DNA of 64,000 nucleotides from positions 1,614,501-1,678,500 of the forward strand of contig NZ_JASPFK010000001.1 in assembly GCF_036855935.1 (NCBI RefSeq), read 5' to 3'. The DNA comes from Sphingomonas sp. LR60 (GTDB lineage Bacteria > Pseudomonadota > Alphaproteobacteria > Sphingomonadales > Sphingomonadaceae). A program made the position numbers and the translations under genes. This document shows positions 46,760 through 57,871 of this stretch, in pieces. Numbering within the stretch: the stretch's first letter is position 1; each line of letters starts with the position of its first letter. The notes under the pieces are model-generated. The model worked only from the letters and a program-made list of their open reading frames with translations. It was not told the origin of the DNA and made no database searches.

Positions 46760-46892
46760 TTACAGCTTGTTGTAGAAGTCCTCAGCGACCGTCTCGAGCC
46801 AGGTCACGGACGTACCGTCAAGTGTTTCGGACACTGCCACATGCGTCATCACGCTATCACGCGCCGCGCCATGCCAGTGCTTGACGCCGGGT
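46760..46892 (-). pseudogene. C-terminal remnant of a cupin-domain protein
   Basis: The minus strand encodes PGVKHWHGAARDSVMTHVAV and then SETLDGTSVTWLETVAEDFY, ending N-K-L-stop. This matches the end of cupin / carboxymuconolactone-decarboxylase-associated proteins (KHWHG is the metal-binding cupin strand). Nothing of the N-terminal part is present; upstream sequence switches abruptly into the decayed integrase, indicating a deletion junction near 46892. Confidence 0.7.
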
Positions 46893-47537
46893 GACGCGTT
46901 TCCGCTCGATCCCCAGCGTCATCTTCGCGGCCGGGATGCGCCAGATCGGCTCGGGGCCGTCCAGTCCTTCAAACTCGTGCCGCTCGGCCAGGCGGACCGG
47001 CGCCGAGCGCGCGCGAACACCTCGGAGATCCGCTGACGCATCCGGTGCGCGGTTTAGACCGCGCCGCGCGCCTCGATCGGCTGCAGCACCTCCAGCACCA
47101 ACGGCGTCGTGATCGACGCGACCGGAAGCTTGCCGATCTTCGGAAAGATGTCGTTCTTGAAGCTGCTCAGCACAAGATCCGCGTGGCGCTTCGACCAGAT
47201 CGTCGTCTGGCTCCCCATGCAATTCGAGCGCCACCGCCTCGAAGGTGCTGCCTGCGGCCACCGCCTGCTCGGCGGCACGCTGGCGTTTCGAGATCGCCGG
47301 ATCCTCGCCTTTGCGGAGGACACGAGCGGCATCGTTCCGAATCTCCCGCGCCTCGTTCAGCGAGATCGAAGGGTAGGGCCGAAGACTAGCCGCTTCTCCT
47401 TTTGCGCGGATCGAGATTTTCCAGCGCCAGGATTTGTAGCCGCTTGGGAGCACTTAAAGGTACAATCCGCCGGCATCGCCCAATTTGTAGGGCTTGGCCT
47501 TTGCTGCGGCTTTCCGACAGGCTACGTCGGTCGGCAT
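46893..47537 (-). pseudogene. Decayed tyrosine integrase (P4/DUF4102 type)
   Basis: The natural start MPTDVACRKAAAKAKPYKLG is at 47537, followed by DAGGLYL, an in-frame TAA at 47454-47456, then VLPSGYKSWRWK and SLRPYPSISLNEAREIRNDA: the integrase N-terminal domain. A frame change near HGE leads to WSKRHADLVLSSFKND and PIEARGAV-stop-TAHRMRQRISEVF. A second change reaches LDGPEPIWRIPAAKMTL, but about 90 residues between these parts are missing, and the catalytic C-terminus is absent. It lies directly inside the attachment repeat at 47687-47710, the expected place for the integrase of the outer segment. Confidence 0.85.
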
Positions 47538-47686: not shown

Positions 47687-47710
47687 CGTAAGCCATTGGC
47701 GGAAGAGGTG
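47687..47710. repeat. Internal attachment-site copy between two integrated segments
   Basis: Identical over 24 bp to 42039-42062, and over its last 16 bp to the tRNA-Ser 3' end at 57780-57795. It separates the outer segment (42063-47686) from the inner one (47711-57779). Confidence 0.82.
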
Positions 47711-48147
47711 TCCGACAATGCCAGTAGCTAAACAACTGTGATAGCTTGATAAACCGTGCTTTCCGCGTTTTATGGCTAACCCCCTGCCTGACCCCGGAAT
47801 GACCCTGTAGCCGGGATCAGCCAAGAAAAATTCTGGGTAAAGCCAGCATCAGTTGACCCCGCCGCCGGTGAATTGCCGGTCAGCCGCGTTGACGCGATCC
47901 TATTGCATAGCCGCCCGCGCAACGGTGGTGTCATCAGCGTTAGGCGCGCTGATGTGATGGACCGGAGAATAGCTCAGGTTGCCATTTGCGCAGCTATCGG
48001 GGCAGCAGCACGGTTGTCGCTGGCGAAGCTGCCCACATTGCTGCAGCTGGTGCATTAGGCGGGGGTGCGCTGTCGAAGAAGCGATGGCAGATCGCTTCCG
48101 TTAGAGGCTGATCGCGCTTTGCAGGTTAGCTGTTGTGTACATATGGT
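47711..48147. other. Left arm of inner element, no convincing gene
   Basis: An ORF of 61 codons at 47873-48058 has no motif and only a weak start. The region contains the candidate arm site below and is the place where left-arm integrase or replication signals would lie. Nothing else recognised. Confidence 0.45.
47838..47849 (+). promoter_or_regulatory. Candidate integrase arm-type site (left end)
   Basis: TAAAGCCAGCAT, 128 bp inside the left repeat of the inner element. It resembles TAAAAGCCAGCAT at 57724, 43 bp inside the right repeat. Confidence 0.4.
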
Positions 48148-48177
48148 GGAATTCCTCACCCGAGTGTGAGGAATTCC
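48148..48177. terminator. Perfect 12-bp inverted repeat downstream of avcD and its small partner
   Basis: GGAATTCCTCAC and GTGAGGAATTCC enclose a 6-nt loop. It lies 66 bp beyond the stop of the 58-codon ORF, on the side where the deaminase transcript would end. There is no T-run, so an operator or RNA-stability role is also possible. Confidence 0.5.
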
Positions 48178-48243
48178 GAGTGGCACTTATTTCTTCATAC
48201 TGCCAACGCAGGAGCATTATTCCAAGCAGGCAGGAAGATTTGA

Positions 48244-48420
48244 TTATGCGGTAAGCCGCTCTTCAATGGCGAGCGGAAGATTATACACGTCACGGTAAGG
48301 TGATGTTCTAAGAATTTGGACCTGCTTGTCTAGGACGTACTGAAACTCGACTGTCAAACCAAGAAATTCTTCCTTATCTGTTTGATTCTGCTGACGGATT
48401 TGCTCCAAGCTAACCCGCAT
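48244..48420 (-). CDS. Uncharacterised 58-residue protein overlapping the avcD 3' end
   Basis: Begins MRVSLEQIRQQNQTDKEEFL, has the middle part GLTVEFQYVLDKQVQILR, and ends IEERLTA. It is charged and predicted helical, with no membrane segment. The ATG at 48420 lies inside the last codons of the deaminase gene (11-bp overlap), and AGGGGAG sits about 8 bases upstream in the right place for a ribosome-binding site. Overlap plus this site suggest translational coupling. No family recognised. It could be an accessory or inhibitory partner of the deaminase, but no motif says which. Confidence 0.68.
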   Translation of the reverse strand: MRVSLEQIRQQNQTDKEEFLGLTVEFQYVLDKQVQILRTSPYRDVYNLPLAIEERLTA

Positions 48421-50131
48421 TGTCCTGCTCCCCTTGCGATGGCAAACACGCTTCTAGACCCACCTTGGGTAAGCTATCAAGGCCTAGAGCGATCCTACGC
48501 TCGACCTGCAAATTCGAATCAGGGAGTTCGAAAATTTTCGGTTTGGCGAAGGCTCTTTGCCAATTGACCGTATAGCCCTGACTATCCTTGCGGCTGTCTG
48601 GCGCACGGAAAAGTGGCCCGTACAAGCGAGGCGCGACGCCTTCATAAGGCTCAAACCGAACGGTTGTGATAGCGGTTGGCATTCCCTCCAATCGCTTCCC
48701 CGAGTCATCCGTTGCAAAGTCCTTGTGGTCGATCATCACCGACTCAGGGAACAGTTCTGAAGTCATACTCTTGGGGTAAGGCTCTATATAGATAACCTTT
48801 GTGATACCCGAAGCAATAATGTGCCTAGCACACATATGGCAAGGGAACGTTGTGCTGAATATAGTGGAGTTATCTACACTGATTCCACGTTGGGCCGCTC
48901 GCATAAGTGCAAACATTTCAGCATGGACAACTCTGCCAAACTCTATGAGATTAGAAATCCTTAGTTCCTTAAAGGTGCTTTTGAACTTCCCCGTAACAAG
49001 TTGCCTAGTGATTTCCGCGGGATCGTCTTCACTCGTTCTCTTGTACAGATTATTATCTTCTAGGAATTTGAGCATCTCGTTGATAATGTCGAACTTTTTA
49101 ACCGAATTAAAATCTTGGCCAGTTTTGAAATCTCTGTTGTCAAGAGACGCGGGATCGTCGGGCCAATATGTCCCACCACCTGCCATGGGAACGTCATTAC
49201 AGCCTGAAGACACGATTTCATTTTGCGGGCTAACAATTACCGCGCCGATCTGCCTTGATAGATCAACAGAGCGCAATGAGGCGGCGCTTGCCTCAAACAT
49301 GAAATACTCGTATCGATAAGGGGTAAGGTAAGGACTACCGAAGAGAAGGTCTATGAACCGTCCAACTTTTATCTCGTAGTCACCGGCAACTCTTACAAAG
49401 AAGTCCCCTAGGGGAAAAGAATCGCGAACATTTTGACCAATTCCGCCGCCGGGCCTTTTTGAGTCGATGTTAATTAGGTTGACCGCTTCCTTTCGGTACC
49501 TTTCAAGGTCGGTACTGACATTTTCTTTTGCAATATCACGTTGCAGTTTAGAGGTTCTTGAGTCCACCGCGTCGAATGCTGACACAAGGATGAAGCCGCT
49601 TCCGTAAAGCCGTCGCAGCGTTGATATTTCGTCAGGGTGCTTAAGAGAATCTACTATGTAGCAAGCGTTTTCTGCATGAATATCTTCCGTCACCCCATCT
49701 TCTTTGTTAAATTCGACTCTTGCCGCCCTGATTGCCGCTACAATCAACGGCACCAGAGCATCACCTTTATCGGACTGACCGCGCAGGAAATCGCCCGCAT
49801 TCATAAGCAGCCTCGTCCGCTCGCCGCCCTTGATGTTATTTAAATGCTCAGAAAGTTTTTCGTCGCACATGCTTCTAATCAAAGCACTAACACGGACTTT
49901 CTCACAGCGGTATTTAAACGCCGCCATCTTCTCTTCAATTAAAGTAGCTAACGCGTGTAGGTCTGTGCCAACCGGGCCAACTAAGCCGATAACGATCTCT
50001 GGCTTGGACCGCTCGCGACCGACCTTTTTCAATATTGGCCCATGCTTTGTCGGAGCTTGCTGACCTAAGCTAGATCCTTCGAGCTTCGCATTCTCAGTTC
50101 TCTTATCTGCTACTTCGCCGACCCCAGTCAC
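48410..50131 (-). CDS. avcD: Anti-phage dCTP/dCMP deaminase with N-terminal P-loop domain (AvcD-like)
   Basis: 573-residue fusion protein. A P-loop kinase-like domain starts at IVIGLVGPVGTDLHAL (about residues 47-61); the loop is atypical because Thr replaces the Walker Lys. A cytidine/deoxycytidylate-deaminase domain covers about 280-450: LSRQIGAVIVS, the zinc motif HAE (His403, Glu405) and PCHMC (Cys431, Cys434). Proteins of this architecture deplete deoxycytidine nucleotides on phage infection (AvcD of Vibrio; anti-phage dCTP deaminases in E. coli). GTG start at 50131 with GGGGAGAGG just upstream. Base composition is visibly less G+C-rich than the chromosomal genes, consistent with transfer. 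It lies in an integrative element, the usual home of defence genes. Confidence 0.9.
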   Translation of the reverse strand: MTGVGEVADKRTENAKLEGSSLGQQAPTKHGPILKKVGRERSKPEIVIGLVGPVGTDLHALATLIEEKMAAFKYRCEKVRVSALIRSMCDEKLSEHLNNIKGGERTRLLMNAGDFLRGQSDKGDALVPLIVAAIRAARVEFNKEDGVTEDIHAENACYIVDSLKHPDEISTLRRLYGSGFILVSAFDAVDSRTSKLQRDIAKENVSTDLERYRKEAVNLINIDSKRPGGGIGQNVRDSFPLGDFFVRVAGDYEIKVGRFIDLLFGSPYLTPYRYEYFMFEASAASLRSVDLSRQIGAVIVSPQNEIVSSGCNDVPMAGGGTYWPDDPASLDNRDFKTGQDFNSVKKFDIINEMLKFLEDNNLYKRTSEDDPAEITRQLVTGKFKSTFKELRISNLIEFGRVVHAEMFALMRAAQRGISVDNSTIFSTTFPCHMCARHIIASGITKVIYIEPYPKSMTSELFPESVMIDHKDFATDDSGKRLEGMPTAITTVRFEPYEGVAPRLYGPLFRAPDSRKDSQGYTVNWQRAFAKPKIFELPDSNLQVERRIALGLDSLPKVGLEACLPSQGEQDNAG

Positions 50132-50217
50132 AAACCTCTCCCCGATGATTGTCGTTCACATCACAGCCAACGTGATCCCATAATCGTTACATCGAACAAA
50201 ATTGTTTGGAAATGCAA

Positions 50218-50303
50218 CAGGTTTGACGGACATATAATCCGCCACATGTGGGCATAATTTGGCTGATTTGCTGGCATTTACGGCTAGCAGCGCGTCAAAC
50301 CTG
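50218..50303 (-). ncRNA. Candidate structured RNA or operator upstream of avcD
   Basis: CAGGTTTGACG (50218-50228) and CGTCAAACCTG (50293-50303) are an 11-bp inverted repeat. Between them is the palindrome CCACATGTGG (50242-50251). The arrangement sits 87 bp upstream of the deaminase start. In Vibrio, AvcD is held inactive by a small RNA (AvcI) encoded next to it, so this is a candidate for an equivalent; equally it could be a repressor site. Confidence 0.35.
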
Positions 50304-50318
50304 ACTATCGGGCTGACC

Positions 50319-50489
50319 CTACTGCTTTCGCCGCCATCCTAAATTCCAAAGTTCATGCGCCTTGCGCAACTCCCGCTCTGCGTCACTACCTGACGGATCG
50401 CCGTAGCCGTATGGGTTGGCTACCACCGGGTAGCCATGCGCCTTGGCCATACGACCTTGCCGGTACGCTGGCTGTTCCGATGGTGCCAT
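50319..50489 (-). CDS. Small hypothetical protein of the inner element
   Basis: 56 residues from ATG 50489: MAPSEQPAYRQGRMAKAHGY, then VVANPYGYGDPSGSD and ELRKAHELWNLGWRRKQ at the end. It starts two bases after the stop of the preceding gene, so it is probably cotranscribed and coupled. No recognised family. Basic and Gly/Tyr-rich. Confidence 0.55.
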   Translation of the reverse strand: MAPSEQPAYRQGRMAKAHGYPVVANPYGYGDPSGSDAERELRKAHELWNLGWRRKQ

Positions 50490-50491
50490 GA

Positions 50492-50905
50492 CTACATCAA
50501 CCTCTCGGCTGGCACGGCGATAACGCCCCAGCGCTCCAACTCCTCCCGGGTGGCTTGGCGTCCGATGCCGGACAAGCCTGACCAATCGTCCATTGGCTCT
50601 GGCTCGGGTTCTGGCTCAGGGCGGGTGAAGGCCGAAGCGGGTAGCTCTTCCTCCCGGTTGCTGAATTCGTCGGCGTAGACTTCCCACATGGCGACAGGCG
50701 ATCCGAGGATACCCCGTGCGCGCTCATGGAGGGCTAACAGAGGCTCTCCCGGTTCCCGACGGACGATCACCCCGGTTGGGTCGCTCATGCCCTCACAGAA
50801 CGGCTCAGCGTCGAAAATACGGCAGGCCATGCGCGGGAACGTCCTAGGAGCCTTCTGGCGTTCGTAACGAGCAACCCGCGCGATCAAGCTGGCATGGCGA
50901 GCCAC
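50492..50905 (-). CDS. Hypothetical phage-type protein
   Basis: 137 residues from GTG 50905, which is two bases after the upstream stop. The first 30 residues are basic; the centre has GEPLLALHERARGILG and AMWEVYADEFSNREEE. A low-complexity Glu-Pro repeat (EPEPEPEPEP) is followed by a small C-terminal part with REELERWGVIAV. No recognised family. It belongs to a run of short coupled minus-strand genes between the primase and the deaminase. Confidence 0.6.
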   Translation of the reverse strand: MARHASLIARVARYERQKAPRTFPRMACRIFDAEPFCEGMSDPTGVIVRREPGEPLLALHERARGILGSPVAMWEVYADEFSNREEELPASAFTRPEPEPEPEPMDDWSGLSGIGRQATREELERWGVIAVPAERLM

Positions 50906-50907
50906 GG

Positions 50908-51227
50908 TTAACGCCCCTCGATCTTATCCAAACGTTCGCTCAATGCCTCGACGGCTTCGCGCTCCAACGCGCGGCTAATTTCAGTAAGCGCATAGATCAA
51001 CTTTGAGCCTTTGGTAACATCAAGCTCGCCACTGGCCATCTGGCGATAGACCTTGACCATCTGACGGCGAGCAGCAGCACCAGTTTCAATACGCAGCCGC
51101 TTGCCCGGCACTTTACCGATGGCAGGGGGAGGTCAGCCAAAAAAGCACCGCTGTTCGTCGATAATGACGAAACAGCAGCGCCATTAGTTGCCTCTACCGG
51201 CGGGTATGAAGACCATCCTTTTGCCAT
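50908..51227 (-). CDS. Hypothetical protein, interrupted by a probable one-base deletion
   Basis: ATG 51227 begins MAKGWSSYPPVEATNGAAVS and the frame then reads through an Ala/Leu/Pro segment into nonsense. One missing base in a run of five G on the plus strand (51125-51129) would join it to IGKVPGKRLRIETGAAARRQ and then MVKVYRQMASGELDVTKGSKL, giving 106 residues. The C-terminal half is helical, charged and ends SERLDKIEGR. No family recognised; the helical part looks like a small phage regulator or terminase-small-subunit-like protein, but this is only an impression. Confidence 0.55.
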
Positions 51228-51242
51228 TTTTCGTCTCTAACC

Positions 51243-51581
51243 TCACTGAGGCTTAGATGGCTTGTCTTCACCGGTCTGTCCATAGCCCGCGCCCCAATTC
51301 TGCTCCAAGTTCGGCCTAGGGTCGCAAAAGCCGCAATGACACTGATCGAATATTGCAGCTATTTCATTGTGACCCGCCAACAGCTTTCGCTTCTTAAGAT
51401 CATTGTCGCATCGCAAAGAAGCCATGAACGACGCACACATGGTTCTACGTTCACCGAGCGGTAAACTTAGAGCCTCCACCATGTCACGTTCAATCCTTAC
51501 CGCCTCTTTTTCACACTTGGCTAACTCATTACAACGGTAAATCTCATATGCGCTGGCTTTGCTATTATCGTTTGCAGTCAT
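51243..51581 (-). CDS. Hypothetical protein with Cys cluster
   Basis: 112 residues: MTANDNSKASAYEIYRCNEL at the start, a helical region with KEAVRIERDMVEALSLPLGE, and a cysteine-rich segment FDQCHCGFCDP that could bind zinc. The C-terminal tail is Gly/Pro/Lys-rich. No family recognised. Same strand and spacing as its neighbours in the inner element. Confidence 0.55.
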   Translation of the reverse strand: MTANDNSKASAYEIYRCNELAKCEKEAVRIERDMVEALSLPLGERRTMCASFMASLRCDNDLKKRKLLAGHNEIAAIFDQCHCGFCDPRPNLEQNWGAGYGQTGEDKPSKPQ

Positions 51582-51649
51582 GAGGCCAAGCCTTCTGTCG
51601 GAAGTGAGCCGCTAGCCCACATTAATGGGCTAGCGGTTTGAGGTTAAAG

Positions 51650-52387
51650 TTACTCGGCTTCGGGTTCCGGGTCATTCTGAAAGCCGGTCGGCTCATACGA
51701 TGCCAGCAGAGACTTGCGCTTTGCGGCCGCAGCAGCATGACCACCCGTACCAGCCGTTGCCTTAACCTCCCAATTCAGCATTGCCTTATGCTGCATGTCG
51801 GCAAAGCTGAGATATCGCTGATGCTGCTTGATCGCAGCCATTTCCGCAGGAGCCGTCTTGAGCTTGAACTGATTGTAGAGAGGGTCACTCACGCTACGGT
51901 CAACACCCGTCAGAATAGCAGGAGCGTCGCCGCCGTAGATCGCGCCGATGACGTTCATGTCTCCATCATTAAATGCCTTTCTGACCGTGGCCAGCCTTTC
52001 TTCAGCCGGCATAGCCAGCAACACCCGGCGGACTTCGCTGGCATAAGCGGTTTCACGAACGCTGAGCTTGCCAGCCAGCTTGCGAGTGGCATCGGCCAAG
52101 GAAGCTTCAAGCTCTTGCCGGGCAACCTTGTAGGAACGTTCAAATTCAGCAACGACCCGCTCGGTTCGCCGTTCGATATTAGCCAGATGGGCAGCACGGG
52201 TTACGGTCGGGTCAGGGTTCTTGCGCAGATAGTCAACTGCCTCAGCCGCCTTCATGGTGCCCACACTATGAGCCTTGAAAGCCGTAGCGCCGGCGGACAC
52301 ATTATCGTCAATGCCAAAAGCGCCATGGTTGAGGTCAGGCTGACCCGCAGGAGCAAGGTTCGGAGCTTCGGGTTGATAAGTAGCCAT
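51650..52387 (-). CDS. Hypothetical protein of the inner element, mostly helical
   Basis: 245 residues from ATG 52387. An N-terminal Pro/Ala-rich stretch precedes a long helical region with ERRTERVVAEFERSYKVARQ and a segment RRVLLAMPAEERLATVRKAF; the C-terminus is acidic (NDPEPEAE). The composition resembles small phage scaffold or head-associated proteins, but I see no diagnostic motif. It is the first gene downstream of the iteron region and may be the first of the run leading to the deaminase. Confidence 0.62.
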   Translation of the reverse strand: MATYQPEAPNLAPAGQPDLNHGAFGIDDNVSAGATAFKAHSVGTMKAAEAVDYLRKNPDPTVTRAAHLANIERRTERVVAEFERSYKVARQELEASLADATRKLAGKLSVRETAYASEVRRVLLAMPAEERLATVRKAFNDGDMNVIGAIYGGDAPAILTGVDRSVSDPLYNQFKLKTAPAEMAAIKQHQRYLSFADMQHKAMLNWEVKATAGTGGHAAAAAKRKSLLASYEPTGFQNDPEPEAE

Positions 52388-52543
52388 GTCAGTTACTTCC
52401 TTCAGAGTTGAGTTGGTTAAGCAATTCGGTAATCATGGATCGTTCGGCAAAGGCAATGTTACCAAGCCAAGAGGTCAGAAAACCAGCAAGCCGGTTCTCC
52501 ATTAGATTAGCCCACATGGGGGCGGTGGAGACTTCCTCTATTC

Positions 52544-52739
52544 TATCAGGCGCTCCCTAGAGGGAGCCTGATATATATATTTTATAGGGGGGGCTCGTGG
52601 TGCGTATGGTGCAAGGGTAGGTGCAAGCAAAGTCAAGCACTTAGCCATTGTTACTGTGAGGGGGTTGGTGCGGGTTGGTGCAGGGTTCAGTGCAGGGGTA
52701 GGTGCAGAGCAAAATCAAGCACTTAGCCGGAGGGGTCGG
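52544..52739. repeat. Hairpin plus iteron array, putative replication origin
   Basis: A hairpin (TATCAGGC...CCTGATA around a CTCCCT/AGGGAG core, 52544-52573) is followed by an A+T stretch ATATATATTTTATA. Then GGTGCA-type repeats occur about seven times between 52608 and 52739, including a longer pair at 52608-52646 and 52690-52728 sharing TCAAGCACTTAGCC. The block lies beside the primase-helicase gene. Repeats, A+T stretch and location together fit an origin. The remainder of 52388-52750 has no gene. Confidence 0.6.
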
Positions 52740-52750
52740 TGCAGCCGGGG

Positions 52751-54811
52751 TCATAGCGCGACGCCCGATGCGGCAAGTCTAATGCCCTTGACCCATGCCC
52801 GATTATCTCTCTGCCAAACCCTTTGTTCGAGCAGAATAACACCCGCACCGTTGAGCCGCTCGAAAGCCCGCTTAAATGCCGCTTTTTTAAGGCCACCCGC
52901 TTCAGGCATTCCCTCGAAGATCTTAGGCGCGTAGTTGACCCCCTCTACATGCCCAACGTTTCGTTTTTGGGCCGCGCAAACTGCCAAGCAACGTAGGAAT
53001 GCTTCATTCTCAAAGTTCGCTTGTGAGTGAGTAGCGATCCGGCCACGCTCAAGCTCGGCAATGTCAGCTTCTCGAATGAACGCCCCTTCATGCCAACGAA
53101 AGGTCAAGCTCTCGCCAGCGCGCCCGTAATTTGACTTGGCGCGTACCAGATAACGAGCGTCACGGTCCCGGATTGTCCCATCGGCTTCCTGTGGGATGCC
53201 AAGGTTAAGACGGGTGCGGACTTGGTTTTCCCAAGCCGTTGAACCGCTGAAGCCAGCACCGCTTTTATTAGGATGGCCAATCAAGATGATTGCTGCACCC
53301 GTTTCCTTGGCCAAACCGGTCAGCAGGTTTAGGAATGCAGCGACTTGGTTGCGGACATTCTCATTGCCGCTGAAAAAGTGAGCAACATTATCCAGCACCA
53401 CAAGCCCGGCACCCATTTCGCGAATGGTCTTGCCAAGCCACTGGTAGGCCGGCGACGGTGCCATTCGCCCGCTTGCGTCAAAGGTAGCCAGTTCGGCGTT
53501 CAGCGCACCAGCGAGGCTGACCACGCCCATCCAGCCATCGAGGTCCGCGATCTGGATACCGGTGGACTCGAGGATGGCGCTCTGACGCCTGTGAAGCTCG
53601 CTGCTGTCATCCTCGCACGTCACGTACAGCGAGACAGCCCGGCGCGTCTGAAGGCCCATCCACAAGGCTCCTGCGGCGACGCTGGTGCATATCTGCTGGC
53701 TCAGCAGCGACTTACCCGCGCCACCCGGCGCGTAGAGCATCGTGACCTCACGAGAGGCGACCCAATCCACTACCGTCCAAACGCGCTGCTCAGGCGCTTT
53801 CCTCGCCCAAGCGGCAACGTTGATGACGTCAGGTTCATCAACCATCTGGACCGGTACAGGAGCGGCGGCGACTTCGTTGCGAAGCGGCGCGCCGTTGACA
53901 GTCACATTGGACGTATCGACAAGCTTAATCTCAGGCCGGTTAAAAGCCGTCTCAATCGTTCTACGGCGGTAGTAAGGTCGGGCTTGCGTCTTGTCCTTGT
54001 TGTTAGCAGCATTGACACGATGGCCAAGCGGCGATGCCAGCCAAATGCGTTCAACCTGCTCACGATTTCCAGACAGGATAGCCAAGGAATTGACTAGCGC
54101 TTGGTCGGCGCGACTATTATCTTTGCCATCGTGCGAAATGTCGCCATTGTAGCGCGCGGCCATCACCGGGTCACGGTAAAGCAAGGCTACAACTTCAGCA
54201 TCGCTTTTATTGACAGCGCGGTCAGCCTGAATACCAGCGTCAGCCTCTTTGCCGCCACCCATCTCCTGATGTAAAGTATCAAGAAGCTCTTGGCGACTGG
54301 CAATAGGCGCATTGTTGACGATATTGCCGGTCATGGTGAAGAAGCGGTCAGACGAATAAACTTCAACACCGTCGCGACGACGCCCGCACGAGACGTTGCC
54401 CTTGACAATGATGTGCAAGCCGGTGCCGCTGGGACTTACCTCAGTATAGCTGTCAAACTCACGACAAATCTTCTCTTGAAGTCGGTTCGCCTCGGGGTCG
54501 CCATGCGTGTCGTCAAGGTCAATGCCGGTATAAGGGTCATCGTCACCGAACATAAAGCCGATGCCGCTAAACCCTGTTTCCTCGACAGGCGCGATAGGGC
54601 TGCAAGGTCCGACTAGCGATAGAGGCGCTGAGCAAGCTTGCTCAAAGCTACCCCATTCGGCGGGCCGATTAGCAGCCGCTTTCTTGCCGCCGGGCCAAGG
54701 CTGGTAAGGAACCTTTGTGGGCTTGGAGCCACCACGAACCTCAAGACGCCAGCACACCCACTGTGAGAGATTACGCAGTTCATTGGGAATGTTGTCGTAG
54801 CACGTAGACAT
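52751..54811 (-). CDS. Primase-helicase fusion, phage/plasmid type
   Basis: 686 residues. The N-terminal part starts PNELRNLSQWVCWRLEVR and contains KPTKVPYQP and FMFGDDDPYTGIDLDD, the pattern of NrS-1-polymerase/D5-like primase modules; DLDD is a candidate metal-binding pair. GSGLHIIVKG-like GTGLHIIVKG follows. A RepA/AAA_25-type helicase begins near 355 with Walker A APGGAGKSLLSQQ and has a Walker-B-like LVVLDNVAHF, then AIILIGHPNKSGAG. Such fusions start replication of satellites and integrative plasmids. The likely origin is immediately downstream of its 3' end. Confidence 0.85.
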   Translation of the reverse strand: MSTCYDNIPNELRNLSQWVCWRLEVRGGSKPTKVPYQPWPGGKKAAANRPAEWGSFEQACSAPLSLVGPCSPIAPVEETGFSGIGFMFGDDDPYTGIDLDDTHGDPEANRLQEKICREFDSYTEVSPSGTGLHIIVKGNVSCGRRRDGVEVYSSDRFFTMTGNIVNNAPIASRQELLDTLHQEMGGGKEADAGIQADRAVNKSDAEVVALLYRDPVMAARYNGDISHDGKDNSRADQALVNSLAILSGNREQVERIWLASPLGHRVNAANNKDKTQARPYYRRRTIETAFNRPEIKLVDTSNVTVNGAPLRNEVAAAPVPVQMVDEPDVINVAAWARKAPEQRVWTVVDWVASREVTMLYAPGGAGKSLLSQQICTSVAAGALWMGLQTRRAVSLYVTCEDDSSELHRRQSAILESTGIQIADLDGWMGVVSLAGALNAELATFDASGRMAPSPAYQWLGKTIREMGAGLVVLDNVAHFFSGNENVRNQVAAFLNLLTGLAKETGAAIILIGHPNKSGAGFSGSTAWENQVRTRLNLGIPQEADGTIRDRDARYLVRAKSNYGRAGESLTFRWHEGAFIREADIAELERGRIATHSQANFENEAFLRCLAVCAAQKRNVGHVEGVNYAPKIFEGMPEAGGLKKAAFKRAFERLNGAGVILLEQRVWQRDNRAWVKGIRLAASGVAL

Positions 54812-54979
54812 AGTAAGCCTTCGGGTCGCTCACCGGTCTTTTCTAGTTCACCCTCTTTACAGGGGATGCCTTCGCAACTAAAAAATACGGGTTCGCAGAT
54901 TTGGATCGTTTGCGGATCGTTTGTCAGGAAGCCTCAGACCCTCACGGTGCGTGCTGTCACCGTGAGGGTTTTTACTGGC

Positions 54980-55174
54980 TCACGCGGCAACTTTGGAGTT
55001 AATCCACTCTGAGATTTGCGCCTCGGTGAAAAGCGTTCGCCGGCCAAACTTTAGCGGCTTCAACTCGCCGGCTTGAACGGCTCGGTAAATTGTAGCGCGT
55101 CCAAGCTTGGTGAACTTCATAACACCCTGAACATCAATCAATTGCGGTAGGGCTGGTGTGGTGTCGATTTGCAT
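54980..55174 (-). CDS. AlpA/excisionase-type helix-turn-helix protein
   Basis: 64 residues with a winged helix-turn-helix of the MerR/AlpA superfamily: LIDVQGVMKFTKLGRATIYR, then AVQAGELKPLKFGRRTLF and TEAQISEWI. P4-type AlpA activates the integrase and such proteins often act as excisionase. It is on the same strand as, and between, the primase and integrase genes. The start ATG 55174 faces a repeat-rich divergent region. Confidence 0.82.
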   Translation of the reverse strand: MQIDTTPALPQLIDVQGVMKFTKLGRATIYRAVQAGELKPLKFGRRTLFTEAQISEWINSKVAA

Positions 55175-55320
55175 TGTGCATGCTCCCGAATGATCTAATG
55201 ACCACTCAGGTGCCTCAACGTCCCAAATTGCGTCAAGGGAAAAACAGTGTCAAAGCCCAGAAATCGCGCCTGTTCTTTATACGTTCTGCTATTCGTGCTT
55301 AAGTTTGCTTATAGTTGCTT

Positions 55321-55442
55321 TAAAAGCCAGCCTAATACTTGCGATAAAAGCCAGCGAGCTAGCCAGCCAAGCCAGCAGGGTCAGCCTGAAAGCCAGCCAA
55401 GTGGGCCAGATACGCAAAAGGGCCAGCATTTCTGCCAGCCCT
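55321..55442. repeat. AGCCAGC repeat block upstream of the AlpA-like gene
   Basis: TAAAAGCCAGC occurs at 55321 and 55345, then further AGCCAGC/GCCAGCC copies run to 55440, about eight in all. The 14-mer GCCAGCATTTCTGC (55422-55435) recurs at 57729-57742 near the attachment site. The block lies in the 350-bp gap between the AlpA-like gene and the divergent membrane-protein gene. An ORF of 85 codons across it is repetitive and has no convincing start, so it is not called. Likely operators or integrase/excisionase binding sites. Confidence 0.5.
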
Positions 55443-55521
55443 TAGCGGATGATATAGAAGCCAAGCCCACATTGAAGCAGATGAGTATGCCGGCTACGTG
55501 CTGATAAGGGGGTATCGTCTC

Positions 55522-56343
55522 GTGCTTCAGATCATTTTCGGGGATGATGAGCATACGGCAGCGGATGGGCCGTACGCGCGGCTGATGAAGACCCGTAAGT
55601 GGCTTTACCTCTCATCCGCGACCTTGTCGATCGTACACGGCGGACTTTACAACGAAAAGGCTGCATCAAGCCTGCTAAAATTCGTTAAAGCGCCAACATC
55701 GGTTGTTGAGCCGGCTCTTGCGATAGGTGTTGCCTATCTTTTGCTGCAATATAGCCTCTTGGTCGGACAGCTCTTATCGACCTACGACATTGTTATTTCT
55801 GATAGGTTCATCTTCCGACGATCAGATGACTTAACCTCTGCTCGCGACAGAATTAAAGAGGCAACGAGCCAGCTTCAATCCAGCATCAATGCTTTTCGGC
55901 AGGATTTTGCAGTTGCACTTCAAGCTCGACAGAATGAACTTGTAAATCAGATTGCGTTAGAAGGTAAGAAGCTAAACGCCCTGACCGAACAGAGAGTTAA
56001 GCTTCAGCAGCAATTATCGGGCAACGGCTCTCTCGCAAAGGTAATGCACGATGAGGGTCGGCAAAACGCGATAAGGGCAAGGCTAATCAACTCTTTAAAG
56101 AAGCTAAAATCCTCGCCTTTAGAGGAGCTTGATCCTTCCTACGACCCAAATGTCAAGCTATGCCAGTCGGCACTTCTGGAAGCGGAGCAGGCTTTTAAAA
56201 TCTTACGCTCCGAAATGCCGTCTGAGAGGCATGGATATAGGTTTGCAGAAGTGATTATCGATACTCTACGTTTGGGGCCGCCTTGGTTATTTGCCGCCCT
56301 CGCCTTGCTGCATTATCTGGTGATTTGGCCCTTCAACGGCTGA
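55522..56343 (+). CDS. Membrane protein with central coiled coil, unknown function
   Basis: 273 residues from GTG 55522 (AAGGGGG nine bases upstream); a GTG at 55498 is in frame but lacks such a site. Hydrophobic helices lie at about 65-90 (VVEPALAIGVAYLLLQYSLLV) and at the extreme C-terminus (LFAALALLHYLVIW). Between them is a long coiled-coil region with QLQSSINAFRQDFAVALQAR and NQIALEGKKLNAL. It is the only plus-strand gene of the inner element and its 3' end overlaps the convergent integrase by 11 bp. No family recognised. It may be a second defence or an immunity gene. Confidence 0.65.
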   Translation: MLQIIFGDDEHTAADGPYARLMKTRKWLYLSSATLSIVHGGLYNEKAASSLLKFVKAPTSVVEPALAIGVAYLLLQYSLLVGQLLSTYDIVISDRFIFRRSDDLTSARDRIKEATSQLQSSINAFRQDFAVALQARQNELVNQIALEGKKLNALTEQRVKLQQQLSGNGSLAKVMHDEGRQNAIRARLINSLKKLKSSPLEELDPSYDPNVKLCQSALLEAEQAFKILRSEMPSERHGYRFAEVIIDTLRLGPPWLFAALALLHYLVIWPFNG

Positions 56344-57622
56344 CCTCTCTTTGTAATTGAACTTGTCCTTCGTTGATAAAATTCTCCCAAGCCGACATAA
56401 GCTCGATTCTCCGCTCAAGATAATTCGTGCGCAGATACGCCGCCCGCACGGCATTCGTATCCTTGTGGGCAAGTGCCGTTTCCAGCACCTCACCGGGGAA
56501 TGACGTTGCCTCAGCGCCCCAATCGCGAAAGCAGGAGCGAGCCAATCCATGAGCCGTAATAGCCGGCATAACGGCATGAAGCGTCTTGTTGATGGCCACA
56601 TCCGATAGCAGCCCGCCGGTAGGGCCGGGGAAGACCCTGCCCACAATAGGCGCGTCGTCGGGCTGGCCAGCGCTGGTGAGCTTCGCACGCGCCCGCTCAG
56701 CCATCGTGGAGAGGATCGACAGCGCTTCAGCGCTCAGCGGGACCGTGTGAGCCTCGCGTGCCTTCATGCGCGCCTCAGGGACGTGCCAGAGCGCCTTGTC
56801 GCGGTCGATCTCGCTCCACTGAGCGCCGCGTACCTCCATCGACCGTGCGGCGGTCAGGACGCTGAAGCGGAGAGCGAGGGCGGACGTGCTGTCCTTCTCC
56901 CTGAGCGCTGCCATGATCGTCGGCACCTCCTGCCATGGCGGCGCTGCGTGGTGCTTGACCTTGCCGGCTACCTCGCGAGGCGATGGCATGATTTTGTCCA
57001 GGTGGTTTTTCCACCGGGCCGGATTGCGCCGGTCAATTTCCTCAGTGATGTAAGCGTAATCAATGACAGCCTCGACCCGCTGACGGACTCGCGTAGCCGT
57101 CTCGGTCTTGGTGGCCCAAATGGGTGTCAGGATCGCCATTATGTCCGCAACCGTAATGGCAGCGGGCCGTTTGGCTCCAATGTGGGGATATGCGTAAGCC
57201 TGAAGCGTGGATGGCCATTGAGCAAGGTGCTTGGCGTTAGGCTCGTTGCCGTTCCTGCCACGCTTGCCTTGACGGTTGGCGATATACTCGACCGCGTAAT
57301 CCTTGAAGGTTTTCGCCATCGGCTCAGCCGCCGGCTTCAGAATCAAAGCCGGGTTACGATCCGCCGCAACCTCAGCGCGTAGCCGCTCAGCAATCTCGCG
57401 AGCCGCTTTAAGCGACTTGGCAGGGTAAGACCCCAAGCCAATCTCAACCGGCTTACCCTTGGCCGCTTCGCCAGCCCAAGTGGCGGTCAGTCTGACCTTG
57501 AAGCGGAAAACGAAGTTGATGCCTGACCCGCGACGCCGGACATAAAGATTGCCGCCATCGCTGGTGTAGCCCTCTTTGGCCTTCTTAACCTGAGAGTCGG
57601 ACAGTAGGTTGATAGCCGCCAT
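56333..57622 (-). CDS. int: Tyrosine integrase (P4/DUF4102 type)
   Basis: Site-specific recombinase of 429 residues that inserts the inner element at tRNA-Ser. The N-terminal DUF4102-type arm-binding domain has INLLSDSQVKKAKEG and IGLGSYPAKSLKAARE. The catalytic domain shows TAARSMEVRGAQW (first Arg), HGLARSCFRDWGAEA (HxxR), a His/Lys in ALAHKDTN, and the nucleophile Tyr in VRAAYLR. ATG 57622 has GGAAGG seven bases upstream; an upstream ATG at 57637 lacks such spacing. It lies 160 bp from the tRNA gene and is intact, unlike the related copy at 47 kb. Confidence 0.92.
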   Translation of the reverse strand: MAAINLLSDSQVKKAKEGYTSDGGNLYVRRRGSGINFVFRFKVRLTATWAGEAAKGKPVEIGLGSYPAKSLKAAREIAERLRAEVAADRNPALILKPAAEPMAKTFKDYAVEYIANRQGKRGRNGNEPNAKHLAQWPSTLQAYAYPHIGAKRPAAITVADIMAILTPIWATKTETATRVRQRVEAVIDYAYITEEIDRRNPARWKNHLDKIMPSPREVAGKVKHHAAPPWQEVPTIMAALREKDSTSALALRFSVLTAARSMEVRGAQWSEIDRDKALWHVPEARMKAREAHTVPLSAEALSILSTMAERARAKLTSAGQPDDAPIVGRVFPGPTGGLLSDVAINKTLHAVMPAITAHGLARSCFRDWGAEATSFPGEVLETALAHKDTNAVRAAYLRTNYLERRIELMSAWENFINEGQVQLQREVSR

Positions 57623-57723
57623 AAACCCGCCTTCCACCCGCCTATTCGGGCCATCCCTCAGCCTTACCCTAGGGCTGAGAAATGGGCAAACAGGGGGAAA
57701 CGTCCTGAGACGCTGAAGTTAGC

Positions 57724-57742
57724 TAAAAGCCAGCATTTCTGC
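57724..57742 (+). promoter_or_regulatory. Candidate integrase arm-type site (right end)
   Basis: TAAAAGCCAGCATTTCTGC. It shares 11 bp with 55321 and 55345, 14 bp with 55422, and TAAAGCCAGCAT with 47838 at the other end of the element. Confidence 0.42.
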
Positions 57743-57779
57743 GGGTTTGAGCTAATTTCTGGCTGTTTTGCATGGCGTA

Positions 57780-57795
57780 ATTGGCGGAAGAGGTG
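57780..57795. repeat. Attachment site at the tRNA-Ser 3' end
   Basis: ATTGGCGGAAGAGGTG is the minus-strand 3' end of tRNA-Ser plus two bases. It recurs at 42047-42062 and 47695-47710. Because the tRNA end is restored, the tRNA stays functional after integration. Confidence 0.85.
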
Positions 57796-57871
57796 GGATT
57801 CGAACCCACGGAGAGCTTGCACCCTCGCTGGTTTTCAAGACCAGTGCCTTAAACCGCTCGGCCACTCTTCC
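57782..57871 (-). tRNA. tRNA-Ser (anticodon TGA)
   Basis: Minus strand from GGAAGAGTGGCCGAGCGG to CACCTCTTCCGCCA, 90 nt with an encoded CCA and a long variable arm. The anticodon loop CTTGAAA gives UGA. Its 3' end is the insertion point of the accessory region. Confidence 0.96.

What the first reader, a model, noticed from the sequence alone, without database searches (positions are those of the whole stretch)
48244..50131. AvcD-type anti-phage deaminase with an overlapping, undescribed 58-residue partner
The deaminase domain and P-loop head are clear from motifs (HAE, PCxxC, GxxGPVGT). The small ORF begins inside the last codons of the deaminase gene, has a good ribosome-binding site there, and ends 177 bp later. 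Known systems of this type are described as deaminase plus regulatory RNA; a coupled small protein would be new and could be an inhibitor, activator or subunit. The first half follows from family knowledge; the role of the small ORF is inference.
Basis: partly seen in the sequence, partly recalled or inferred. Interest (0 to 1): 0.85.

Follow-up and report, generated by a model that had tools for sequence, protein, structure and literature searches.

The report
Anti-phage deaminase with tiny protein partner
A bacterial anti-phage enzyme that destroys a DNA building block is encoded together with a tiny helical protein that seems not to have been described, and relatives of the pair occur in other bacteria including E. 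coli, so the tiny protein is probably a built-in regulator of the enzyme that can now be tested.

Summary
At 48410-50131 (-) lies an anti-phage dCTP deaminase (AvcD type). A 58-codon ORF (48244-48420, -) overlaps its last 11 nt behind a good ribosome-binding site. Alone, the 58-residue sequence is almost an orphan. Loci of related deaminases show a fast-evolving partner family: of 94 AvcD loci in a tree, all 27 outside two strongly supported partner-free clades (36 and 30 rows) and one long single branch carry a 46-74 residue ORF at this place (-104 to +45 nt); a profile finds it in 0 of the other 67. One related E. coli AvcD, not in the tree, lacks it. Two of three pairs tested show purifying selection. 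In 12 of 5,426 E. coli genomes the ORF lies beside avcD, annotated 'hypothetical protein'. AlphaFold predicts a helical hairpin. Evidence that the window's own copy belongs is moderate: good against its nearest genomic relative, weak against the whole family. Its role is inferred: most likely a protein inhibitor (antitoxin-like) lost when phage shuts down the host; a stabilising or activating subunit is the main rival. My searches of open papers found no protein partner of AvcD; published AvcD is held by an RNA, AvcI. The pair ends a 10.1-kb satellite-like island in tRNA-Ser.

The parts
48410..50131 (-). anti-phage dCTP deaminase (AvcD type), 573 aa, GTG start; N-terminal P-loop domain and C-terminal zinc deaminase domain
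   Evidence: NF041025 408.5 bits (cut-off 400), PADLOC dCTPase, PF00383; conserved GPVGT, HAE, PCHMC
48244..48420 (-). small partner protein, 58 aa, ATG start; predicted helical hairpin (helices 5-20 and 24-39) with a low-confidence C-terminal tail
   Evidence: presence of the ORF class by clade; similarity to L116 partner
48410..48420 (-). 11-nt overlap of the two genes (probable translational coupling; inferred)
48428..48433 (-). Shine-Dalgarno sequence GGGGAG of the small ORF, 7 nt before ATG, inside the deaminase gene
   Evidence: read from the sequence
47695..57795 (.). 10.1-kb integrated satellite-like island that carries the pair at its far end; bounded by the 16-bp direct repeat ATTGGCGGAAGAGGTG (47695-47710 and 57780-57795)
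   Evidence: GC 0.54 against 0.65-0.68 in the flanks
57782..57871 (-). tRNA-Ser (tga), integration site of the island
56333..57637 (-). tyrosine integrase with Arm-DNA-bind_3 domain
   Evidence: Pfam
54980..55174 (-). AlpA-like helix-turn-helix regulator
   Evidence: PF12728 3e-10, PF05930 1.1e-4
52751..54811 (-). AAA_25 protein, probably a replication helicase/primase (function inferred)
   Evidence: PF13481 5.4e-34

Best explanation
The locus is a two-gene defence module: an AvcD-type dCTP/dCMP deaminase and a small, rapidly evolving helical-hairpin protein translated from the same mRNA by overlap coupling. Shown: both reading frames are there; the ORF class is a trait of particular AvcD lineages; in two of three pairs tested it is kept as protein; the window's copy is predicted to fold as a hairpin. 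Inferred: the small protein binds the deaminase and keeps it silent (a protein counterpart of the AvcI RNA), and is short-lived, so that when a phage stops host gene expression the inhibitor is lost and the deaminase empties the dCTP/dCMP pool. The system travels as cargo of a phage-satellite-like island.
For: Deaminase family. Partner ORF in 27 of 27 tree rows outside the partner-free clades and by profile in 0 of 67 other AvcD loci. Leave-one-out profile test: 20 of 24 members rank first among about 2,900 control ORFs, three more rank 2, 3 and 5. Purifying selection: L055/L057 6 synonymous to 3 non-synonymous changes, omega 0.10, p 0.002; L130/L131 p 0.0008. Window copy against L116 partner: z 5.1, p 0.004; rank 4 of 2,910 with L116 alone, rank 1 of 2,353 with L116 plus five sphingomonad partners. 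Hairpin model, block means of pLDDT 89-96 over residues 1-30. Inhibitor role by analogy: AvcD is held by an antitoxin lost on transcription shut-off (PMC10511110, passages); a 47-aa protein encoded just downstream of Sofic suppresses its toxicity (PMC12249575, section 2.1).
Against: Against whole-family profiles the window copy ranks only 339 of 2,916 or 437 of 2,277, 1,044 of 2,196 against the WPxWK members alone, and 419 of 2,174 against L116+L130+L131. No homologue among 5.8 billion proteins by shared words. E. coli L171 AvcD, whose best matches are partner-bearing AvcDs, has no such ORF. A read-through fusion model gave the partner part pLDDT of about 30-56, so no docking is seen. L170/L069: 4 synonymous and 8 non-synonymous changes, p 0.16. 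No experiment bears on inhibition; an AvcI-like RNA upstream is not excluded.
Confidence: 0.5

Rival explanations
1. The small protein is a real subunit, but positive: it stabilises or activates the deaminase, or senses a phage product and switches it on. Without it the deaminase is inert.
For: Same conservation and coupling evidence. An overlapping second gene is also typical of stoichiometric subunits (general knowledge). One related E. coli AvcD lives without it, which is easier if it is not an essential antitoxin.
Against: The AvcD studied elsewhere is toxic when made without its inhibitor (passages of PMC9455884, and PMC10511110); whether that AvcD falls in a partner-free lineage was not tested.
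Confidence: 0.27
2. The window's own 58-codon ORF is a chance or decayed reading frame, although the family elsewhere is real.
For: Weak whole-family scores; no database homologue; no DNA of a closer relative was available.
Against: Chance rate of such an ATG plus SD ORF is 8 of 67, and 1 of 67 once the second partner type is set aside; the three nearest tree relatives L116, L130 and L131 carry the ORF; confident hairpin; similarity to L116 partner.
Confidence: 0.1
3. The conserved thing is an RNA element or coupling signal at the 3' end, and the peptide is incidental (type III-like control as with AvcI).
For: Published AvcD is controlled by RNA (PMC10511110). Terminator-like hairpins follow the ORF in L055, L057, L069, L116 and L170 (read by eye).
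Against: Synonymous changes are in excess in L055/L057 and L130/L131; members are recognisable as proteins; no Rfam match at the gathering score and one weak unrelated match at E 0.39; the fold of 306 nt upstream is ordinary, z -1.04.
Confidence: 0.05
4. The small protein acts on the phage or on something else (second effector, anti-anti-defence) and merely shares the operon.
For: Tail is variable (by eye).
Against: Tied to particular AvcD lineages: 0 of 67 other AvcD loci, 0 of 29 Fic loci, and a plasmid search with a Vibrio member found it only beside avcD (2 of 2 records).
Confidence: 0.08

Closest known systems
AvcID (Vibrio cholerae, V. parahaemolyticus, E. coli): dC deaminase AvcD with RNA antitoxin AvcI, called type III TA
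   Same: Same deaminase family
   Different: Described regulator is a noncoding RNA encoded upstream (PMC10511110 and PMC9455884, passages); here a protein-coding ORF lies downstream and overlaps. No AvcI was recognised here, but there was no AvcI model to search with.
Anti-phage dCTP deaminase of NF041025 and PADLOC dCTPase (founding 2022 papers recalled, not held)
   Same: Window protein passes the NF041025 cut-off
   Different: No model of these two libraries matched the partners searched at cut-off
Sofic with AS1 (E. coli), 47-aa protein encoded downstream that suppresses toxicity (PMC12249575, abstract and section 2.1)
   Same: Size, downstream position, toxic defence effector
   Different: Effector is a Fic AMPylase; AS1 letters were not available to compare; no family-A ORF behind 29 Fic genes
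phrog_38465 (phage protein family, unknown function, 55 positions)
   Same: Matches partners L115 (1e-14), L108 (1.9e-4), L069 (0.0013) and L095 (0.0069)
   Different: No hit to the window copy, L094 or L055; no function recorded there

Membership tests
anti-phage dCTP deaminase (AvcD) | NF041025 score at or above 400 bits | tested here: met
   408.5 bits, residues 45-515; PADLOC 482 bits
anti-phage dCTP deaminase (AvcD) | Zinc deaminase motifs HAE and PCxxC, and N-terminal P-loop | tested here: met
   H403 A404 E405, P430 C431, C434 and G55 among invariant columns of 24 rows
anti-phage dCTP deaminase (AvcD) | deaminates dCTP/dCMP and protects from phage | not testable with these tools
   no assay
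AvcID type III toxin-antitoxin | structured AvcI RNA upstream of avcD | tested here: inconclusive
   no relevant Rfam hit; 306-nt upstream fold z -1.04; no AvcI model to search with
AvcD downstream partner family A (defined here) | same-strand ORF of 46-74 codons starting -104 to +45 nt from the deaminase stop | tested here: met
   -11 nt, 58 codons
AvcD downstream partner family A (defined here) | sequence similarity to other members above control ORFs | tested here: inconclusive
   rank 1 of 2,353 with L116 plus five sphingomonads, 4 of 2,910 with L116, 7 of 2,471 with nine clade members, but 419 of 2,174 with L116+L130+L131 and 339 of 2,916 with all
AvcD downstream partner family A (defined here) | two-helix hairpin | tested here: met
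   AlphaFold2 H5-20, H24-39; only this member was folded alone, so that the fold defines the family is assumed
type II toxin-antitoxin | small protein directly neutralises the toxic partner | not testable with these tools
   needs co-expression and binding assays
Sofic-AS1 | homology of the small protein to AS1 | not tested
   AS1 letters not in the text read; indirect check behind 29 Fic genes found no family-A ORF

The most novel reading that the evidence does not exclude
AvcD deaminases have exchanged regulators: some lineages use a helical-hairpin protein antitoxin encoded downstream, others carry a second, unrelated kind of downstream partner with a QLxLxL motif, and others, as published, the RNA AvcI. 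That would make AvcD a toxin that has moved between RNA and protein control.
Probability: 0.4. Interest if true: 0.8.

Novelty: new variant of a known kind. Interest (0 to 1): 0.6.

Why it matters
dCTP-deaminase defence is described as a deaminase with an RNA regulator. If a coupled small protein controls a good part of the family, annotation by the deaminase alone misses half of the system, deaminases cloned without it may be unregulated or inactive, and the trigger may differ: a labile protein would respond to translation arrest as well as transcription arrest. An E. coli version beside a satellite integrase makes this directly testable in laboratory strains.

Tried and rejected
AS1 of Sofic as a family-A member: the 30 fetched Fic_N loci (one without the Fic motif, so 29 examined) gave no family-A ORF behind the Fic gene (best E 0.27); not supported, and it served as a negative control. 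A general WPxWK protein outside AvcD loci: phrog_38465 hit 2 of 200 genomes of the phylum weakly, and 1 of 14 control genomes. L138, whose ORFs were listed, lies beside a TraG/VirD4-like ORF as I read it by eye, not avcD; L137 was not examined; not pursued. Direct searches with the 58-aa protein: none in genome contigs, in 5.8 billion proteins, in plasmids, and outside the window's own genome nothing better than E 0.057 in 396 genomes of the order. The deaminase as a single query in genome contigs also found nothing. Small-ORF scans of viral contigs with L115 and L095 found nothing. Plasmid and phage searches with P0132 found nothing. Docking by a read-through fusion model was uninformative. 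Foldseek of the hairpin in the PDB: best E 8.6. The L055/L057 upstream comparison to look for AvcI was useless because the shared DNA begins inside the deaminase gene. L059 was first counted as lacking the ORF because my search window stopped at -62; the ORF is at -104.

Full report
Observation. The two reading frames are exactly as described: deaminase 48410-50131 (-), 573 aa; small ORF 48244-48420 (-), 58 aa, starting 11 nt before the end of the deaminase gene, with GGGGAG 7 nt before its ATG. The deaminase passes the NCBIfam model for anti-phage dCTP deaminase (408.5 against 400 bits) and matches PADLOC dCTPase. 2,479 relatives were found and the best 120 listed, the nearest 80% identical over 92% (P0002); the DNA of P0002-P0005 (70-80%) was not within reach. 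No solved structure matched more than the deaminase domain.

The small protein alone looks like an orphan. No Pfam, NCBIfam, PADLOC or PHROG hit, no protein sharing three 5-residue words among 5.8 billion, none in plasmids, nothing convincing in 396 genomes of the order.

Relatives of the deaminase changed the picture. I collected AvcD loci from genomes of the family (24 of 397), class (17 of 385) and genus (15 of 295), all three counts including the window's own genome; from genus-level searches around G609, G352, G279 and G471 (3 of 32, 1 of 3, 3 of 45, 1 of 7); from viral contigs (36 loci); and from eight plasmid or phage records. Scripts listed ORFs around each deaminase stop. A recurrent 46-74 residue ORF stood out, beginning from -62 to +45 nt of the stop (one more at -104), often in an overlap. 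Nine members carry a W(P/S)xW motif; several sphingomonad ones have FxxL(S/P)-like residues there instead (by eye).

Is the family real? Members were first picked by eye, so I tested them. Leave-one-out profiles against about 2,900 control ORFs from the same loci put 20 of 24 members first; L131, L032 and L058 came second, third and fifth, and the window copy 339th. For a tree, 103 loci had a deaminase match. I dropped five repeats (L070, L082, L091, L113, L117) and four partial or split ones (L054, L106, L107, L123), leaving 94; L132-L134 and L169 are re-fetches and were never counted. In the tree (quick method, midpoint root for drawing) 26 rows bear the trait: a 6-row clade (support 99), 15 of a 16-row group (87) that holds the window, and five single branches beside that group whose order is not resolved. 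The remaining row of the 16, L059, has the ORF at -104, so it is 27 of 27. The other 67 rows are a 36-row clade (99), a 30-row clade (100) and the long branch L096. A profile search around their stops found nothing (best E 1.1 among 372 ORFs). The window's own 12-row clade (99) bears the trait in every row. L035 and L059 were added by resemblance and were not in the leave-one-out test. Independent of sequence resemblance, an ATG ORF of 43-80 codons with a Shine-Dalgarno-like 4-mer occurs in 24 of 27 against 8 of 67 loci (Fisher p 1.5e-12; L131 counts through an earlier in-frame start at -89; misses L035, L090, L130). Six of those 8 have the QLxLxL motif of another partner type and L097 a related C-terminal pattern, leaving L044. 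One exception is known: an E. coli AvcD next to yecA (L171; a related sequence lies in 18 of the 5,426 genomes, of which one was read). Its best matches are L115, L108 and L069, and it has no such ORF. It is not in the tree.

Is it protein? L055/L057: 6 synonymous and 3 non-synonymous changes, omega 0.10, p 0.002. L130/L131: 21 to 37, p 0.0008, with synonymous sites saturated. L170/L069: 4 to 8, p 0.16, most of the non-synonymous ones in the last residues, which also carry an indel. NCBI annotates the E. coli copy as a hypothetical protein (WP_000021256.1), one base behind avcD; in the one locus read it lies between a psu-like gene and an integrase at tRNA-Sec, which I recognise (recalled) as a P4-like satellite (L170). 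Deaminase, hypothetical protein and integrase together are listed in 12 of 5,426 complete E. coli genomes. A profile search with nine partners found 39 proteins; those with a name are called hypothetical or uncharacterized, in Burkholderia, Klebsiella, Vibrio, Pseudomonas and others. Among the Vibrio and Photobacterium ones the N-terminal core is conserved and the tail varies.

Does the window copy belong? For: it sits in a 4-row subclade (99) with L116, L130 and L131, all with the ORF. Its deaminase is 52, 45 and 47% identical to theirs. Pairwise with the L116 partner z 5.1, p 0.004; with the other nine partners tried z was 1.8 or less; L116 in turn resembles the WPxWK member L094 with z 5.1. 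Rank 4 of 2,910 control ORFs with L116 alone, 1 of 2,353 with L116 and five sphingomonad partners, 7 of 2,471 with nine clade members, 11 of 2,704 with thirteen. Against composition-matched shuffles it ranked 9 of 2,860 to 41 of 2,926 in those tests. AlphaFold2 gives helices 5-20 and 24-39 with block means of 89-96 over residues 1-30 and a low-confidence tail, on an alignment that already assumes the family. Against: rank 419 of 2,174 with L116+L130+L131 and 54 of 2,463 with L055 added, 339 of 2,916 with the whole family, and 1,044 of 2,196 with the WPxWK members only. I put it at about 0.85-0.9 that the window ORF is a real partner gene.

Mechanism. Published AvcD is a toxic deaminase held by the RNA AvcI, which vanishes after transcription shut-off (PMC10511110, passages; PMC9455884, passages). 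The Sofic defence toxin is held by a 47-aa protein encoded just downstream (PMC12249575, abstract and section 2.1). The size, downstream coupling, tie to AvcD and variable tail of family A fit a labile protein inhibitor best; a positive subunit is the main rival. Neither is shown. A fusion model of L076 showed no confident partner fold or docking, which says little because that part of the alignment was almost empty and the tool gives no contact confidence. An upstream RNA was not detected, but I had no AvcI model, so RNA control in addition is possible.

Setting. The pair is the last cargo of a 10.1-kb island bounded by a 16-bp repeat of the tRNA-Ser 3' end, with integrase, AlpA-like regulator and AAA_25 protein, GC 0.54 against 0.65-0.68 in the flanks. 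This parallels the E. coli locus L170.

Literature. Seven searches of the open PMC library gave no description of a protein partner of AvcD. The two founding 2022 papers are not held, so absence from print is not established. The paper on P4-satellite hotspots (PMC9122126, word search only) has no 'deaminase' in its main text.

Verdict.

Noticed in passing
L048, L049, L050, L051, L052, L053, L089, L098, L099, L124, L126, L129, L136, just downstream of avcD: A second kind of AvcD partner: ORFs of 58-93 or about 170-183 aa that start near the deaminase stop and share a Q(L/F/M)x(L/F)x(L/F) motif, in 13 of 67 non-family-A loci against 67 of 2,409 control ORFs. Six were searched in Pfam and four in PADLOC without a convincing match.
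   Followed up: partly
L110:705-887 and L111:124-306 (also L109, L114), upstream of avcD: In these E. coli, Klebsiella and Photobacterium plasmid loci a 56-61 aa annotated ORF lies upstream of avcD, where AvcI would be expected, ending in (L/I)(K/T/R)W. Between L110 and L111 changes favour synonymous sites (pS 0.63, pN 0.31, p 0.008), so the region may also encode a protein.
   Followed up: partly
L032 and L036, upstream of avcD: avcD plus partner sits close behind an nrdB-like gene (ribonucleotide reductase small chain) in two genera; 80-residue pieces matched PF00268 at 42.5 and 31.6 bits, cut-off 33.6. That enzyme feeds the very pool the deaminase depletes.
   Followed up: no
48148-48177: Perfect 12-bp palindromic hairpin GGAATTCCTCAC-GTGAGGAATTCC 66 nt after the small ORF, without a T run; possible terminator or mobile-element mark (read; not among the terminator-like sites).
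   Followed up: no
46857-47453: Integrase N-terminal remnant (Arm-DNA-bind_3) outside the left end of the island, perhaps from an older insertion.
   Followed up: no
50319-51581: Four small ORFs without a Pfam match at cut-off between avcD and the AAA_25 gene of the island.
   Followed up: no
L171 (E. coli, beside yecA): AvcD related to the partner-bearing ones but without the downstream ORF; its annotated protein has a long N-terminal extension before the P-loop.
   Followed up: partly
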